Below are positions 33,623-39,904 of a DNA stretch of 64,000 nucleotides, piece after piece (the stretch's first letter is position 1; every line of letters starts with the position of its first letter). This DNA comes from Pseudophaeobacter sp. EL27. GTDB taxonomy: Bacteria > Pseudomonadota > Alphaproteobacteria > Rhodobacterales > Rhodobacteraceae. Position numbers and translations under genes: made by a program. The DNA lies in assembly GCF_900313025.1 (NCBI RefSeq), contig NZ_OMPQ01000009.1, positions 450,072-514,071 of the forward strand, read 5' to 3'. The notes beneath the pieces are model-generated. The model saw only the letters and a program-made list of their open reading frames with translations, was not told where the DNA came from and made no database searches.

Positions 33623-33727
33623 CGTGCGAAAATAGCAACATACTGCATGTAAAACCGTGCTGATTCACATCGCTTTCCCTGTGCAAACCAACTGTTTCAG
33701 CTTAAACCTGAATTTAGGAGAAGTGTA

Positions 33728-34183
33728 ATGCAGAGTTTATTAGTACTGAACGGTCCAAATCTTAACCTACTTGGGACCCGACAACCCGAAGTTTACGGGC
33801 CAGAAACCCTCGAAATGCTGGAAGAAACCTGTGTTGAACATGGCAGGAAATCCGGATTTCAGGTTGAGTGTTTGCAATCAAACCACGAAGGGGCTTTGCT
33901 GGACGCCATTCATGCGGCCCGCGGTAAACATGCCGGGATTATCCTGAACGCTGGTGCCTACACCCATACCTCCATCGCACTGATGGATGCCATTCTCTCG
34001 GTTGAGATCCCGACTGTTGAGGTCCACCTGTCCAATATCCATGCCCGTGAGAGCTTTCGCCACCAGTCCTATATCGCGAGGGCTGCAATAGGCCAGATCT
34101 GCGGTTTTGGCAGGCAGGGCTATTTGATGGCGATTGATGCCCTGGTGCAGAAGTTATCTCAAGTAGACGGTGCAACCGCATGA
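33728..34183 (+). CDS. aroQ: Type II 3-dehydroquinate dehydratase
   Basis: It dehydrates 3-dehydroquinate to 3-dehydroshikimate, the third shikimate-pathway step. The 151-residue length fits the dodecameric type II enzyme. Active-site residues align with those known in M. tuberculosis AroQ with an offset of one: Arg18 and Tyr23 on the lid loop, Asn74, His100 and Arg111. TAGGAG precedes the ATG. The stop overlaps the next gene's start (ATGA), so it is translationally coupled to a LuxR-type regulator, an unusual partner for this enzyme. Confidence 0.96.
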   Translation: MQSLLVLNGPNLNLLGTRQPEVYGPETLEMLEETCVEHGRKSGFQVECLQSNHEGALLDAIHAARGKHAGIILNAGAYTHTSIALMDAILSVEIPTVEVHLSNIHARESFRHQSYIARAAIGQICGFGRQGYLMAIDALVQKLSQVDGATA

Positions 34184-34935
34184 CAATGTTGGATTACCTT
34201 CACTTTGTTTCCGGCGCCAAAAGCCTGGAGGAGCTCTGGCACACCCATGTCTTGAAAATGGAAGAATACGGGTTTGACCGGCTCATCTACGGCTATACGC
34301 GGTTCAAGACTGAAACCTCGCTGGGCGACCCGGACGATTTTGTTATCCTCACAAATCATGACCAAAAATACATCTCTGGCTTTCTGCATCAGGGCCTCTA
34401 TCGCCAGGCACCAATGGTGCTATGGGCGTTGGAGAATGAAGGCGCCGGCAGTTGGACCAAGATCCGGGAATTGCTTGAAGACGGGCAGCTTAGCCCGGGT
34501 GCCAAACAAGTAATTGAATTCAATGAGCGCATGCAGTTGAACGCTGGTTATACAATCAGCTTCTTCTCGGCCTCCAAACGCTACAAAGGTGCAATCTCGC
34601 TGGCGGCAAAGCCCGGGAGTAGCCAAAGCGAGTTGGACGAAATGTGGCAAGAGCACGGTGAGGATATCGTGCTGATGAATAATGTGGTTCATCTCAAAAT
34701 TCTGACCCTGCCCTATGACCCCCCGAATCGCAGCCTCACCAGCCGTCAGCGCGAAGCCCTGGAGTGGGTTGGCGACGGAAAAACCACCCAGGATATTGCT
34801 TTGCTCATGGGGCTGACCTCGGCCACAGTTGAAAAGCATCTGCGTCTGGCGCGGGCTTCGCTGTCGGTCGAAACCAGTGCGCAGGCAGTTCTAAAAGCAG
34901 CTCTGCAAAACCAGATGTATGTGCTTGAAAACTAG
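34180..34935 (+). CDS. LuxR family transcriptional regulator (autoinducer-binding-like domain), LuxR solo
   Basis: The 251-residue protein has an N-terminal autoinducer-binding-like domain (about 15-165) and a C-terminal LuxR HTH (LTSRQREALEWVGDGKTTQDIALLMGLTSATVEKHLRLARASL, about 186-228). By my hand alignment the AHL-contact positions are altered: the Trp57, Tyr61 and Asp70 positions of TraR appear as Tyr, Phe and Ala in the stretch KYISGFLHQGLYRQAP, while the following Pro is kept. No luxI homologue is in the window. It may therefore sense a non-AHL ligand. It overlaps aroQ by 4 nt. Confidence 0.88.
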   Translation: MTMLDYLHFVSGAKSLEELWHTHVLKMEEYGFDRLIYGYTRFKTETSLGDPDDFVILTNHDQKYISGFLHQGLYRQAPMVLWALENEGAGSWTKIRELLEDGQLSPGAKQVIEFNERMQLNAGYTISFFSASKRYKGAISLAAKPGSSQSELDEMWQEHGEDIVLMNNVVHLKILTLPYDPPNRSLTSRQREALEWVGDGKTTQDIALLMGLTSATVEKHLRLARASLSVETSAQAVLKAALQNQMYVLEN

Positions 34936-34983
34936 TAATCTTAGTCACGAGAAGAAGGCTCTCAGAGCGCTAAAATGTTGGAT

Positions 34984-35031
34984 GCGCACTCTTCGCGTAA
35001 AAGGGGAACCTTCCCTAGGGGAAGAGTGCGC
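34984..35031 (+). repeat. Perfect 11-bp inverted repeat with internal stem downstream of luxR
   Basis: GCGCACTCTTC (34984-34994) and GAAGAGTGCGC (35021-35031) are exact reverse complements. The 26-nt loop contains a smaller GGGAA/TTCCC pairing. There is no T-run, so it is not a standard terminator. Confidence 0.75.
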
Positions 35032-35470
35032 TATTCGGGTAAGGAAAACACTACTACACTCATTGCGCTATTTCAGGCAGAATATAGCTGTTCCGTGAGT
35101 GGTGGCTTTAGCCTAGGAACTTTGGGAAATGATCCTTGCAATACCAGGGCTCTCAGACCTGTTCGGTTTCTGGCGTGTATTTTTCCACGCCAGTACCGTG
35201 TTAAAGAGGGGTCCCATCCATCCCCATCAATGGGGCCTCTCGTCTCCCCTCCCTCCCTTTACCCTACGTCTTGGTGCCAGTTCGACCTGCTGTCCAAATT
35301 GTACCATTTCCCAAGGCTCCCTCCCGCTTTTAAGGCGAAGTCAAAGCGCCAGTAGATGGGTCTTGGTACATTGCGCGCTTTGGTTCATTGGCCTGCTTTG
35401 CGTTGCCTTCTGTCACTTCCGCACATTCTACCCCCCTTTGTTTGATCAAACTCCGCCAAACAAAAAAAGA

Positions 35471-35492
35471 GGCTGACGGAAAACCGCCAGCC
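35471..35492 (-). terminator. Intrinsic terminator of rpsB-tsf
   Basis: On the minus strand, GGCTGGCGG-TTTT-CCGTCAGCC (one G-U pair) is followed by TCTTTTTTT. It lies 26 bp after the tsf stop. Confidence 0.9.
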
Positions 35493-35518
35493 CCTAAATT
35501 CTGTCGCTTTGTAAAAGC

Positions 35519-36394
35519 TTAGCCTTGGGCAGCTTTTGCAACTTCAGCTGCGAAGTCTTCTTTTTCGACTTCGATGCCTTCGCCAACTTCCAGACGCACA
35601 AAACCGGTGATGGTCGCGCCTGCTTCTTTTGCAGCGGCTTCCACAGTGAGGTCAGGGTTCACAACAAAGGCCTGGTTCAGCAGAGTGGCTTCGGCGACGA
35701 ATTTCTTCATGCGACCAACGATCATCTTCTCGATGACGGCCTCAGGCTTACCGGATTCGCGTGCGATATCCATCTGAACCTGCTTTTCTTTCTCAACAAC
35801 CGAAGCATCCATGTCGGCCTCAGAGAGAGCGGCAGGGTTAACAGCTGCAATGTGCATTGCAACCTGCTTGCCGAATGCCTCATTGCCACCGGTCATTGCG
35901 ACCAATACGCCGATTTTGCCCATGCCAGCGGTTGCGGCATTGTGGACGTAAGAGATCACGGTCTCGCCTTCCAGCGCAGCCATGCGGCGCACCGACATGT
36001 TCTCACCAATGGTGGCGATCTTGGCGGTGATCACGGCCTCGACGGACTTGCCGCCCATGTCAGCAGCTTTCAGCGCGTCAACGTCCGCAACACCCAGGGC
36101 AACCTTGGCGATACCGCCAACCATTTCCTGGAATTCAGCGTTTTTGCCAACAAAGTCGGTTTCAGAGTTCACTTCAACCGCAACACCTTTGCCGCCATCA
36201 ACAACAACGGCCACCAGGCCTTCTGCTGCGGTACGACCGGATTTTTTGGCCGCTTTGGCCAGACCTTTGGTGCGCAGCCAATCAACGGCGGCTTCCATGT
36301 CGCCATTGGTTTCGGTCAGCGCTTTTTTGGCGTCCATCATGCCGGCGCCGGTGGAGTCGCGCAGTTCTTTAACGAGTGCAGCTGTGATTGCCAT
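35519..36394 (-). CDS. tsf: Translation elongation factor Ts
   Basis: EF-Ts is the nucleotide-exchange factor for EF-Tu. The 291-residue product has the N-terminal UBA-like domain ([26 protein letters not shown]) and the EF-Tu-contacting T79-D-F-V82 motif. It follows rpsB in the usual rpsB-tsf order, 90 bp downstream, with a hairpin between them. A terminator follows. Codon use is strongly biased, which also produces a full-length antisense open frame that I regard as a shadow. Confidence 0.98.
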
Positions 36395-36484: not shown

Positions 36485-37240
36485 TTATTCAGCAACAGCT
36501 TCTTCTACAGGCGCATCTTCCAGGGCGCCGAGATCAACACCGGCAGCACCCAGCTGAGCGGACATGCCGTCCAGAGCAGCACGTGCAACCAGATCGCAAT
36601 ACAGGTTGATGGCGCGCGATGCGTCATCGTTACCTGGGATCACAAAGTCAACGCCATCAGGGGAGCAGTTGGTGTCGACAACTGCCACAACCGGGATACC
36701 CAGTTTTTTGGCTTCGGCGATGGCCAGTGCTTCTTTTTTCACGTCGATGACGAAAAGCAGGTCAGGAACACCGCCCATTTCGGCGATACCGCCGAGGGAG
36801 GCCTGCAGTTTCTGCTGGTCACGTTCCATGCCCAGGCGCTCTTTCTTGGTGAGGCCTTCGGCACCACCTTCGAGCTTCTCGTCGATTTCGTTCAGACGCT
36901 TGATCGACTGGGAAACAGTTTTCCAGTTGGTCAAGGTGCCGCCCAACCAGCGGTGGTTCATGTAGTACTGAGCGGATTTCTCAGCGGCTTCAGCGATGGG
37001 GCCTGCGGCCTGACGCTTGGTACCAACAAAAAGAACGCGGCCGCCCTTGGCAACGGTATCACGAACAATTTGCAGAGCTTGGTCCAGCATTGGAACGGTC
37101 TGTGTCAGGTCCATGATGTGGATGCCGTTACGCGCGCCATAGATATATGGGCCCATACGTGGGTTCCAGCGCTGTGTCTGGTGACCAAAGTGTACGCCTG
37201 CTTCCAGCAGCTGGCGCATGGTGAACTCGGGAAGAGCCAT
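36485..37240 (-). CDS. rpsB: 30S ribosomal protein S2
   Basis: The 251-residue product begins [29 protein letters not shown], the S2 signature, and continues with the [26 protein letters not shown] region. It assembles late on the small subunit. ATG 37240 is preceded by AAGGA; the open frame extends to 37477 but the extra residues are leader. A -35/-10 promoter (37366-37394) and a foldable leader precede it. Confidence 0.98.
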
Positions 37241-37397: not shown

Positions 37398-38225
37398 CTA
37401 ATTGCGCATCTCAGCATGGCCTTGCCGTACCACGCGCTCACACTCCGCAGCCAAGGCCTTGCGGTGGGGAAAATCACTCACCTTCAGCGGCGTATGATAG
37501 GTCAGCTCAACCCGCCCTTGACGCAGGGAGGCCAGGGTTTTCAGCAGATGTGGGCCAAACTCCATTTCACCCCACCATCCGTAAAACCGCTGCTCAGCCC
37601 CGTTGGGGGCATGAAACACCGCCGAAACCGGCTGGATGTAACAAATATCGCGCAGGTGATCGCCAAAGAAGGCGGCAAAAAGCGTTGTTTTAAAGGGAAG
37701 AACCCGCAGCCCGTCGGTGGAGGTGCCTTCGGGGAAAAACAACAGCTTATGCCCAGCCATGAGGCGGGCCTCAAACAGGTCGGTCTGCTCCTTGGCGCGG
37801 GCCCGGTTGCGTTCGATAAAGACGGTTCCGGTGGCGCGCGCCAGCCAGCCGATGCCAGGCCAGGCGGCCACTTCGGCCTTGGAGACAAAGTAGATCCGCT
37901 TTTTGGCGTTGAGGGCAAAGATATCCAGCCAGGAGGTGTGATTGGCCACCACAGCGCCGCGGTGTTTCATCAGGGTGCCATGGGCCGTAAAGCCAATCCC
38001 CAGGATACGAAAGGCATTGCGGCAGACAAACTGAGTAATAAAGGGCGTGACCGGTCGGTGCAGTCCGCAAAGCGGCCGCTCTATTAAGCGCACCAGCAGC
38101 AAGAGCAGCAAACCGCCAAACACCAGTGTCCCCAGGAGACTAGCACGTAGCAGGATTAGGACCCCGCCAAGGGCGGTGATCCGCAGTGGCTCAGGTGGTT
38201 CGCCTTCACTCCAGGTCGCAGACAT
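37398..38225 (-). CDS. olsA: Lysophospholipid/lyso-ornithine-lipid acyltransferase (PlsC fold)
   Basis: The 275-residue protein has a hydrophobic N-terminal anchor (about 20-48), the catalytic HX4D box in NHTSWLD (His96, Asp101) and the FPEGTSTDG acyl-acceptor motif. It acylates a lyso-lipid at the inner membrane. The gene just upstream is OlsB-like, separated by 3 bp. Together they suggest ornithine-lipid synthesis, with this protein adding the second acyl chain; an ordinary 1-acyl-glycerol-3-phosphate acyltransferase is the alternative. Confidence 0.85.
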
Positions 38226-38228
38226 CTG

Positions 38229-38990
38229 TTATCCCTTGACCTTATCGGTGCTGTAGAAGCGTTTTTGCCGTGCTGTCATGCGGGCGGTGTCGAGGATCAT
38301 CATAACATCCGTGGTGTTAAAGTCGTGATCAATAAAGGCCCCATCTCCCACCATGCCACCAAGGCGCAGGTAAGCCTTGATCAGGGCCGGGCAGTCGACC
38401 ATGGCCCGCTTGCGGTCCACGGCATCGGCAGGCAGCAGATCCATGCTCTGGTAGCGGCGCGATCTGCAGCGAAGCGGTTCTGGCGCCAGGTAGTCCTGGT
38501 TCAGCACGGTCAAAGGGCCCGACAATGCATCCAGGTTGGTGCCGGCAAAACTTGCGGTGCCAAACAGGATCTCGATACCCTGTTCGCTCACATAGTCATT
38601 GAGGCCCGCCCAGAGGTAAAACAAAGCCGTGCCGCCACGAAACTGGGGGTGCAGGCAGGATCGCCCCAGCTCCAGCAATCTCCGCCCGGAGCTGGTCAGT
38701 GGCGCCAGATCGTATTCGGATTCGGAATAGAACTCCCCTGCCGCCAACGCCTGATCGCTGCGCATCAGACGGTAAACGCCAACCACGCGCCCCGTCTCAG
38801 TCTCGCGGATGATCATATGGTCACAAAAAGCATCGAACTGGTCCTTCTCCAGACCTTCATGATGATCAACCAGGGCGCCATCCGCCCCCATCTCGCTCAC
38901 AAAGACTTCATAGCGAAGCGCCTGAGCCTCCCTCAGGTCGGTCTCATCTTTGGCCAAAGAGACGGTGAATTCTGCTGGGCTGTCAGCCAT
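38229..38990 (-). CDS. olsB: L-ornithine N-alpha-acyltransferase (OlsB-like GNAT)
   Basis: The 253-residue protein belongs to the OlsB/hemolysin-like GNAT family: ALRYEVFVSEMGA near residue 30, GVYRLMRSD, LELGRSCLHPQFRGG and LFGTASFAGTN. The enzyme transfers a 3-hydroxyacyl chain from ACP to ornithine, giving lyso-ornithine lipid. It is directly upstream of olsA on the same strand. Ornithine and related aminolipids are abundant in roseobacters and replace phospholipids under phosphate stress, which fits loosely with the Pho system in this window. I see no Pho box upstream. Confidence 0.88.
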   Translation of the reverse strand: MADSPAEFTVSLAKDETDLREAQALRYEVFVSEMGADGALVDHHEGLEKDQFDAFCDHMIIRETETGRVVGVYRLMRSDQALAAGEFYSESEYDLAPLTSSGRRLLELGRSCLHPQFRGGTALFYLWAGLNDYVSEQGIEILFGTASFAGTNLDALSGPLTVLNQDYLAPEPLRCRSRRYQSMDLLPADAVDRKRAMVDCPALIKAYLRLGGMVGDGAFIDHDFNTTDVMMILDTARMTARQKRFYSTDKVKG

Positions 38991-39280: not shown

Positions 39281-39307
39281 GTGATGGGCCCAATTCGGAG
39301 GAATGTT

Positions 39308-39904
39308 ATGGCCGTAGATACCGCCAATTTGGCCGCTTTGATAGGGTCCAGAATTTGTCACGATTTGATCAGCCCTGTCGGTGCCATCAACAACGGATTA
39401 GAGCTCTTGGCGATGTCCGGTGCAATGGTCGGCCCTGAGCTGGAATTGATTTCCGACAGCGTGCTCAACGCCAATGCCCGCATCCGGTTTTTCCGCATTG
39501 CCTTTGGCGCCGCCGGCGACCAGCAGATGGGCCGGGCCGAAATTGTATCGGTTCTGGATGACATCAGCAAAGCAGGCCGGTTGAAGTTCCAATGGGACCA
39601 TTCCGAGGGATGCAGCCGCAGTGAAGTCCGCATGGCCTTTCTTGCAGCGCTGTGCCTGGAGACCGCCCTGCCCTATGGCGGCATGATTTCGATCTCTTGC
39701 GATGCTGGAAAATGGACCGTGGCCGGCGAAGGCCGCAAGATCAACGTGGAAGCTCCGCTCTGGGGCTATCTAGACGCCAGCGATACCTCGGCAAACCTCG
39801 CCCCCGCACAGGTGCAATTTGCCATGCTTCCCGTCGCCGCCCAGGAGGCTGACCGGAAGGTTGGATTTGATCATACTGAAGAAAAGATCACAGTCTGGTT
39901 CTAG
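39308..39904 (+). CDS. chpT: Histidine phosphotransferase ChpT
   Basis: ChpT relays phosphate from CckA to CtrA and CpdR in the alphaproteobacterial cell-cycle/motility relay. The 198-residue protein has the phospho-accepting His18 in SRICHDLISPVGAINNGLELL and a degenerate HATPase-like C-terminal half. GGAGGAA at 39297-39302 fixes ATG 39308; an in-frame ATG at 39281 lacks such a site. It is monocistronic, with a strong terminator after it. In roseobacters this relay controls flagella, gene transfer agents and quorum-linked traits. Confidence 0.9.
   Translation: MAVDTANLAALIGSRICHDLISPVGAINNGLELLAMSGAMVGPELELISDSVLNANARIRFFRIAFGAAGDQQMGRAEIVSVLDDISKAGRLKFQWDHSEGCSRSEVRMAFLAALCLETALPYGGMISISCDAGKWTVAGEGRKINVEAPLWGYLDASDTSANLAPAQVQFAMLPVAAQEADRKVGFDHTEEKITVWF

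What the first reader, a model, noticed from the sequence alone, without database searches (positions are those of the whole stretch)
34180..34935. LuxR solo translationally coupled to aroQ, with altered signal-pocket residues
The regulator overlaps aroQ by 4 nt and no luxI is near. By hand alignment the AHL-contact positions equivalent to TraR Trp57, Tyr61 and Asp70 appear as Tyr, Phe and Ala, with the next Pro conserved. Loss of the Asp that holds the AHL amide suggests a different ligand. The tie to a shikimate-pathway gene raises the idea that it senses an aromatic or shikimate-derived signal.
Basis: partly seen in the sequence, partly recalled or inferred. Interest (0 to 1): 0.7.

Follow-up and report, generated by a model that had tools for sequence, protein, structure and literature searches.

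The report
Known LuxR solo next to aroQ
This is a LuxR-type gene regulator with an altered signal pocket that is widespread in one family of marine bacteria; it was already catalogued in 2015, and its link to the neighbouring aromatic-synthesis gene is looser than it looks.

Summary
A 251-aa LuxR-type protein (34180-34935) overlaps aroQ by ATGA. At TraR positions W57/Y61/D70/P71/W85/G113 it has Y/F/A/P/W/G. No luxI lies beside it. It is not new: Subramoni et al. 2015 (PMC4338825, Table 4, group 1) list aroQ/geneX - luxR solo - tsf(C) in Rhodobacteraceae with W57Y, Y61F, D70I/G/A, E178Q, and suggest a role in aromatic amino acid synthesis. New here are limits to that reading. Of 199 genera of the family sampled, 137 carry the regulator; aroQ is directly upstream in 61, absent there in 74, undetermined in 2. 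The pocket signature is alike with and without aroQ. At least nine genera have the luxR-type aroQ but no luxR at the threshold used. The steady neighbour is convergent tsf-rpsB. So aroQ looks like a positional neighbour, and shikimate sensing is weakened. Most likely it is a non-AHL, or ligand-independent, family-specific regulator. Ligand and targets are unknown.

The parts
34180..34935 (+). LuxR-type solo regulator, 251 aa: PF03472 autoinducer-binding domain (residues 16-173) and GerE HTH (185-239)
   Evidence: AlphaFold2 model mean pLDDT 82.4, pTM 0.67; Foldseek: LasR ligand-binding domain TM about 0.8-0.86 by target length
33728..34183 (+). aroQ, type II 3-dehydroquinate dehydratase (the lineage of aroQ found beside this luxR)
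34180..34183 (+). ATGA start/stop overlap of luxR and aroQ; 62 of 69 named linked loci overlap by 4 or 1 nt
34357..34413 (+). stretch holding the codons of H60, Y64, F68, A77 and P78 (TraR Y53, W57, Y61, D70, P71 positions)
34453..34455 (+). codon of W92 (TraR W85 position)
34546..34548 (+). codon of G123 (TraR G113 position)
35519..36394 (-). tsf, translation elongation factor Ts, convergent with luxR: the most constant neighbour of this regulator
36485..37240 (-). rpsB, ribosomal protein S2 (the 2015 table prints rpoB at this place)
33623..33641 (+). CGTGCGAAAATAGCAACAT, a block conserved in the 12 genus genomes examined, 104-109 nt before aroQ; role unknown

Best explanation
A Rhodobacteraceae LuxR-fold transcription factor (the 'group 1' LuxR solo of Subramoni et al. 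2015). Shown: the two LuxR domains; loss of the AHL amide-holding Asp and change of the two aromatic head-group contacts; a signature kept across the subfamily; a chromosomal place that is nearly always beside convergent tsf-rpsB. Inferred: it works as a LuxR-type DNA-binding regulator that does not hold an AHL in the TraR/LasR way and answers instead to a non-AHL, probably endogenous, small molecule. Inferred: where aroQ is upstream, the overlap gives luxR co-transcription and perhaps translational coupling with aroQ as a way to be expressed, and is not a sign of what it senses. Neither ligand nor target genes are known.
For: Domains and fold. Signature HYFAPWG (Y53, W57, Y61, D70, P71, W85, G113 positions) against YWYDPWG in most other LuxRs of the same and related genomes. 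D at the D70 place in 0 of 71 rows and in 0 of the 24 rows that cover it among 25 more genera. Y64, W92 and G123 in 71 of 71 rows, with or without aroQ, so the pocket region is under constraint independent of aroQ. Subfamily in 137 of 199 sampled genera of the family; in a class-wide draw of 289 genomes the 5 matches are all of this family and the other 284 have none (kinship of only 20 of these 284 is printed, all other families). Against a tight aroQ tie: 61 linked, 74 not, 2 undetermined, and aroQ alone at the same tsf-rpsB site in the 4 luxR-less loci read with enough flank (L184-L187). PluR and PauR show that LuxR-fold proteins with changed motifs can sense non-AHLs (PMC4414361, passages).
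Against: PluR and PauR need the Asp (D75) for sensing, and the plant-responsive solos are listed with changes at W57 and Y61 only (PMC4414361 passages; PMC4338825 Table 3). Solos without the Asp are listed (AvhR D70S; groups 3, 6, 7, 9), but no ligand for any of them was given in what I read, so a ligand-independent protein fits nearly as well. The regulator is found mostly in genomes that also have luxI (127 of 137 with it, 37 of 62 without it; Fisher p 6.5e-8, not corrected for kinship), which could point to an AHL link. No operator common to the family was found. F68 is Y, as in AHL receptors, in 7 of 71 rows.
Confidence: 0.5

Rival explanations
1. Ligand-independent LuxR: the changed residues close the pocket, and activity is set by expression level (for example through coupling to aroQ) and not by a signal.
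For: Asp replaced by Ala, Gly, Ser, Thr or Ile; aromatic residues Y64, F68, W92 strongly kept, which could pack a filled core. Ligand-independent solos are a recognised class (PMC10134790 passages).
Against: The examples of that class named in PMC10134790 keep all six motif residues (passage), unlike this protein. The AlphaFold2 model keeps the LasR-like ligand-binding fold. Pocket-equivalent positions are among the most conserved of the protein. Model coordinates were not at hand for a cavity calculation.
Confidence: 0.27
2. AHL receptor with another way of holding the head group, listening to the cell's own or others' AHLs.
For: Strong co-occurrence with luxI across 199 genera; three of six motif residues kept; closest solved structures are AHL receptors; an orphan luxI is in the own genome.
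Against: Asp lost in every ortholog row that covers it; 10 of 137 genera with the regulator have no luxI at E 1e-6; the co-occurrence is not corrected for kinship.
Confidence: 0.13
3. Sensor of an aromatic or shikimate-pathway metabolite that controls aroQ (first reader; a role in aromatic amino acid synthesis is also the suggestion of Subramoni et al. 2015).
For: aroQ directly upstream in 61 genera, overlapping by 4 or 1 nt in 62 of 69 named linked loci. The aroQ beside luxR is of another lineage than the aroQ of unlinked genomes, and among the listed matches no genome with luxR has an aroQ of at least 57% identity away from it.
Against: 74 of 137 genera have the regulator without aroQ beside it, with the same pocket residues in those aligned; at least 9 genera have this type of aroQ without luxR; 11 changes of linkage on the luxR tree.
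Confidence: 0.1

Closest known systems
Group 1 'unknown' LuxR solos of Subramoni et al. 2015 (PMC4338825, Table 4; abstract, sections 15 and 17 and passages seen)
   Same: Gene order aroQ/geneX - luxR solo - tsf (complement), Rhodobacteraceae hosts, W57Y, Y61F, D70 to A/G/I, E178Q; suggestion of an aromatic amino acid role
   Different: The text says aroQ was always in the same transcriptional unit (in representative genomes; the table itself allows another gene); here 74 of 137 genera lack it there. The gene after tsf is rpsB here, rpoB in the table. P71 is kept in this protein (P71V is among the changes listed for the group).
TraR / LasR type AHL receptors
   Same: Both domains, fold, P71, W85 and G113
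   Different: W57, Y61 and D70 replaced; no cognate luxI beside it
Plant-associated solos OryR / XccR / PsoR
   Same: Solo LuxR with changes at W57 and Y61
   Different: Listed with W57M, Y61W and a pip neighbour (PMC4338825 Table 3); here Y and F, Asp lost, neighbours aroQ and tsf
PluR / PauR of Photorhabdus
   Same: LuxR fold with altered motif, non-AHL signals
   Different: TYDQCS / TYDQYI keep Tyr and Asp (PMC4414361 passages); here YFAPWG
AvhR and the hchA-linked solos (PA1136 family, group 9 of 2015)
   Same: Solos listed with the Asp replaced (D70S; D70A/R/Q/N); the best NCBIfam hit of this protein is the PA1136 family model
   Different: That hit is far below the cut-off (52.3 of 215.6 bits) and the gene context differs
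VarR of Nautella italica R11
   Same: Solo LuxR of a roseobacter
   Different: VarR is said not to lie in an operon, and to have a next-best hit of only 26% identity, in R. pomeroyi (PMC3230580, PMC4602140 passages), while this protein is 66% identical to its R. pomeroyi relative; so probably not the ortholog (sequences not compared)

Membership tests
Subramoni 2015 group 1 LuxR solo | Context aroQ or other gene - luxR - tsf on the opposite strand | tested here: met
Subramoni 2015 group 1 LuxR solo | W57Y, Y61F, D70I/G/A | tested here: met
   Y64, F68, A77:
Subramoni 2015 group 1 LuxR solo | E178Q in the HTH domain | tested here: met
   Q190 lies opposite the Glu of TraR LDPKE in the alignment and is invariant in the 26 rows; that this Glu is number 178 was not checked
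Subramoni 2015 group 1 LuxR solo | P71V (listed among changes) | tested here: not met
   P78 kept here and in 70 of 71 rows; the paper lists changes seen in the group, so I read it as not required of each member
AHL-binding LuxR receptor | PF03472 plus GerE domains and LuxR fold | tested here: met
AHL-binding LuxR receptor | WYDPWG motif | tested here: not met
   YFAPWG, 3 of 6 kept
AHL-binding LuxR receptor | Cognate luxI adjacent | tested here: not met
AHL-binding LuxR receptor | Binds AHL | not testable with these tools
   needs protein or reporter work
Plant-associated (OryR type) LuxR solo | W57M, Y61W | tested here: not met
   Y and F:
Plant-associated (OryR type) LuxR solo | pip (proline iminopeptidase) neighbour | tested here: not met
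   the genes on either side are aroQ and tsf
PA1136 / hchA-linked regulator (TIGR03541) | Score over the curated cut-off | tested here: not met
   52.3 of 215.6 bits
VarR of Nautella italica | Orthology to EEB72782 | not tested
   sequence of VarR not compared; published identity and context argue against

The most novel reading that the evidence does not exclude
A regulator carried by most sampled genera of Rhodobacteraceae, anchored at the tsf-rpsB locus, that has dropped AHL sensing and reads an endogenous non-AHL metabolite reporting growth or translation state, feeding that into the same cells' quorum-sensing network (it co-occurs with luxI). aroQ would be one of several upstream genes that have supplied its expression.
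Probability: 0.08. Interest if true: 0.65.

Novelty: already known. Interest (0 to 1): 0.28.

Why it matters
The group was catalogued in 2015. My searches of the held library turned up no mutant, ligand or target for it, although it is in 137 of 199 sampled genera of a major marine family. That the aroQ link is missing in 74 of these 137 while the pocket stays the same tells experimenters not to start from shikimate ligands, and that a deletion in an unlinked species would avoid polar effects from or on aroQ.

Tried and rejected
Shikimate-ligand reading: tested by linkage census, pocket comparison and trees; weakened, not excluded.

VarR as the ortholog: set aside on published identity and context, without comparing the sequences.

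Common operator: the block before aroQ is shared by the 12 genus genomes examined and is single in the own genome at 0 mismatches (one other site at 2). With up to 4 mismatches it was not found just upstream of aroQ or luxR in the loci outside the genus, except a 4-mismatch hit across the aroQ start of L105. The Leisingera/Phaeobacter and Ruegeria sets shown have other conserved blocks, and 16 unlinked luxR upstream regions share none. No lux box is claimed.

Loss of the ribosome-binding site as a sign of translational coupling: predicted anti-Shine-Dalgarno pairing does not differ between linked (85) and unlinked (31) luxR starts (p 0.38) or from aroQ starts (p 0.57). Null result; coupling rests on the overlap alone.

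OlsB as a source of an N-acyl amino acid ligand: olsB lies within 5 kb downstream in 62 of 73 named loci with room, but in only 2 of 16 loci from other genera, where tsf-rpsB stay in 16 of 16. Not pursued.

Structured RNA in the luxR-tsf gap: two overlapping Rfam matches on the minus strand, both below gathering score; treated as chance.

Dropped or awkward rows. Gene calls by longest ORF were noisy because of antisense frames and were replaced by tblastn with named proteins. In one search five of 31 rows were wrong-frame and dropped (L124, L127, L128, L131, L136). The aroQ match list was cut off. The 31 genera missing from it were read directly: 6, of which 2 have the upstream side of luxR off the contig (L270, L273). 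Of the 45 with aroQ listed elsewhere, 14 were read directly, and 3 more plus one with both further matches not all listed were read because a second aroQ match was not listed (G075, G102, G158, G168): none has aroQ beside luxR. The rest rest on coordinates. Some genera carry two matches; L306 is a second copy without tsf. L287 (38% identity, other gene order and motif) is probably not an ortholog but is kept in the counts.

Full report
What is there. ORF 34180-34935 (+) encodes a 251-aa protein with an autoinducer-binding domain and a LuxR-type HTH, both over Pfam cut-offs. It starts inside the stop of aroQ (33728-34183), in ATGA. An AlphaFold2 model from an alignment of 81 sequences has mean pLDDT 82.4 and pTM 0.67. 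Foldseek's first matches are full-length LasR, CviR, TraR, RhlR, QscR and SdiA at TM about 0.5-0.6, with large rmsd because the domain arrangement differs, and then the LasR ligand-binding domain at TM about 0.8-0.86 by target length.

Pocket. The profile alignment to TraR and MAFFT with other LuxRs agree: TraR Y53, W57, Y61, D70, P71, W85, G113 correspond to H60, Y64, F68, A77, P78, W92, G123. Of 31 LuxR loci taken from the own genome and relatives, 5 were extracted in a wrong frame and 4 belong to this subfamily; of the other 22, D is kept in 22 and the six-residue motif in 21. In 71 rows of the subfamily (69 different), Y64, W92 and G123 are kept in 71, F68 is F in 64 and Y in 7, and position 77 is A in 62, G in 5, S in 2, T in 1, I in 1 and never D. 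Of 25 more genera, 24 cover these positions, none has D, and 23 have Y64; the exception, L287, is probably not an ortholog.

Spread. One genome per genus, 199 genera of the family at 90% completeness or more: 137 have the regulator (E 1e-45). In a class-wide draw of 289 genomes the 5 matches are all of the same family; the other 284 have none, though the kinship of only 20 of these is printed. The KLH11 genome has three PF03472 proteins, and PMC3824088 (passages) lists two paired luxR and one orphan, RKLH11_1390, for it, so that gene is the ortholog by elimination. By the same reasoning SPO1974 is the likely ortholog in R. pomeroyi DSS-3, judged from another strain.

Link to aroQ. Among the 137 genera, coordinates show aroQ directly upstream in 61; in 45 aroQ is listed only elsewhere; in 31 it was not in the cut-off list. 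Reading those 31 (6) shows no aroQ beside luxR in 29, and in 2 the upstream side is off the contig. Four of the 45 with an unlisted further aroQ match were also read: none has aroQ beside luxR. So 61 linked, 74 not, 2 undetermined. Linked aroQ are 56-100% identical to this one, unlinked 49-56%. The 17 sampled aroQ of the unlinked type are one clade (100/97), apart from the luxR-linked type; the linked rows fall on the other side of a branch of 98/80 together with 6 rows from luxR-less genomes and 2 rows from other families, with few columns and many unresolved forks. In the four read with enough flank (L184-L187) it sits alone beside tsf-rpsB. On the luxR tree the linkage needs 11 changes (10-12 in bootstrap trees), at least 5 forced by starred branches; long branches make deep placements unsure. 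Among 80 named loci, which are the best hits to this protein and so biased to close relatives, 69 have aroQ upstream, 62 of them overlapping by 4 or 1 nt and 7 with gaps of 0 to 9 nt.

Constant neighbour. Convergent tsf lies downstream of luxR in 35 of 36 of L148-L183 (the other has none in the 2.5 kb before its contig ends), in 21 of 25 of L263-L287 (one contig end directly after luxR; two with none in 2.5-2.9 kb; L287 with tsf on the other side), and in 76 of 80 named loci (two contigs end within 0.1 and 2.5 kb; two have none in 5 kb).

Literature. Subramoni et al. 2015 (PMC4338825; abstract, sections 15 and 17 and passages seen) list this as group 1 of unknown LuxR solos with the same context and substitutions, and infer a role in aromatic amino acid synthesis because aroQ was always in the same transcriptional unit in representatives. 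The finding is therefore already known. My census does not bear out 'always', and the gene after tsf is rpsB. Searches for a mutant, ligand or later study of the group found none in the held library; most subscription papers are missing from it. PMC4886583 (passages) reports that the three orphan luxR genes of D. shibae, one of them possibly this one, did not change in expression with AHLs; that says nothing about activity.

Mechanism. Shown: domains, predicted fold, residues, gene order, distribution. Inferred: DNA-binding regulator; no AHL held in the TraR manner; a non-AHL ligand more likely than none, because pocket positions are kept so strictly; aroQ a positional neighbour whose overlap can supply expression. 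Against: co-occurrence with luxI (127 of 137 against 37 of 62; p 6.5e-8 without kinship correction) leaves a link to quorum sensing open, although 10 genera with the regulator lack luxI at the threshold used; and the non-AHL sensors that I read about keep and need the Asp that is lost here.

Noticed in passing
33623-33641 (+): Block CGTGCGAWAWTNGCAACAT 104-109 nt before aroQ in the 12 genus genomes examined (0-2 mismatches), single at 0 mismatches in the own genome; part of it reads TGCnAnnnTnGCA, an imperfect dyad. Function unknown.
   Followed up: partly
G000:C13:175896-176423 (outside the window): An orphan luxI over the Pfam cut-off with no PF03472 luxR beside it, on the same contig as the window.
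   Followed up: no
37398-38990 (-): olsB-olsA (ornithine lipid synthesis) near luxR; OlsB matches the LuxI family weakly (20.9 bits, cut-off 24). Near luxR in 62 of 73 close named loci but 2 of 16 loci of other genera.
   Followed up: partly
39281-39904 (+): chpT-like phosphotransferase of the CckA-ChpT-CtrA relay, about 4.3 kb from luxR; NCBIfam scores are below the cut-off, Pfam HPTransfase over it.
   Followed up: no
Rhodobacteraceae, many loci: The family uses two separate aroQ lineages: one at the luxR/tsf locus, one elsewhere; by my count of the rows, 175 of 193 genomes with aroQ have a single match.
   Followed up: partly
34936-35518: Gap of about 580 bp between luxR and convergent tsf. 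In R. pomeroyi an antisense transcript at SPO1974 (probable ortholog) is listed in PMC4809877 (passage); read-through from tsf is a possible source.
   Followed up: no
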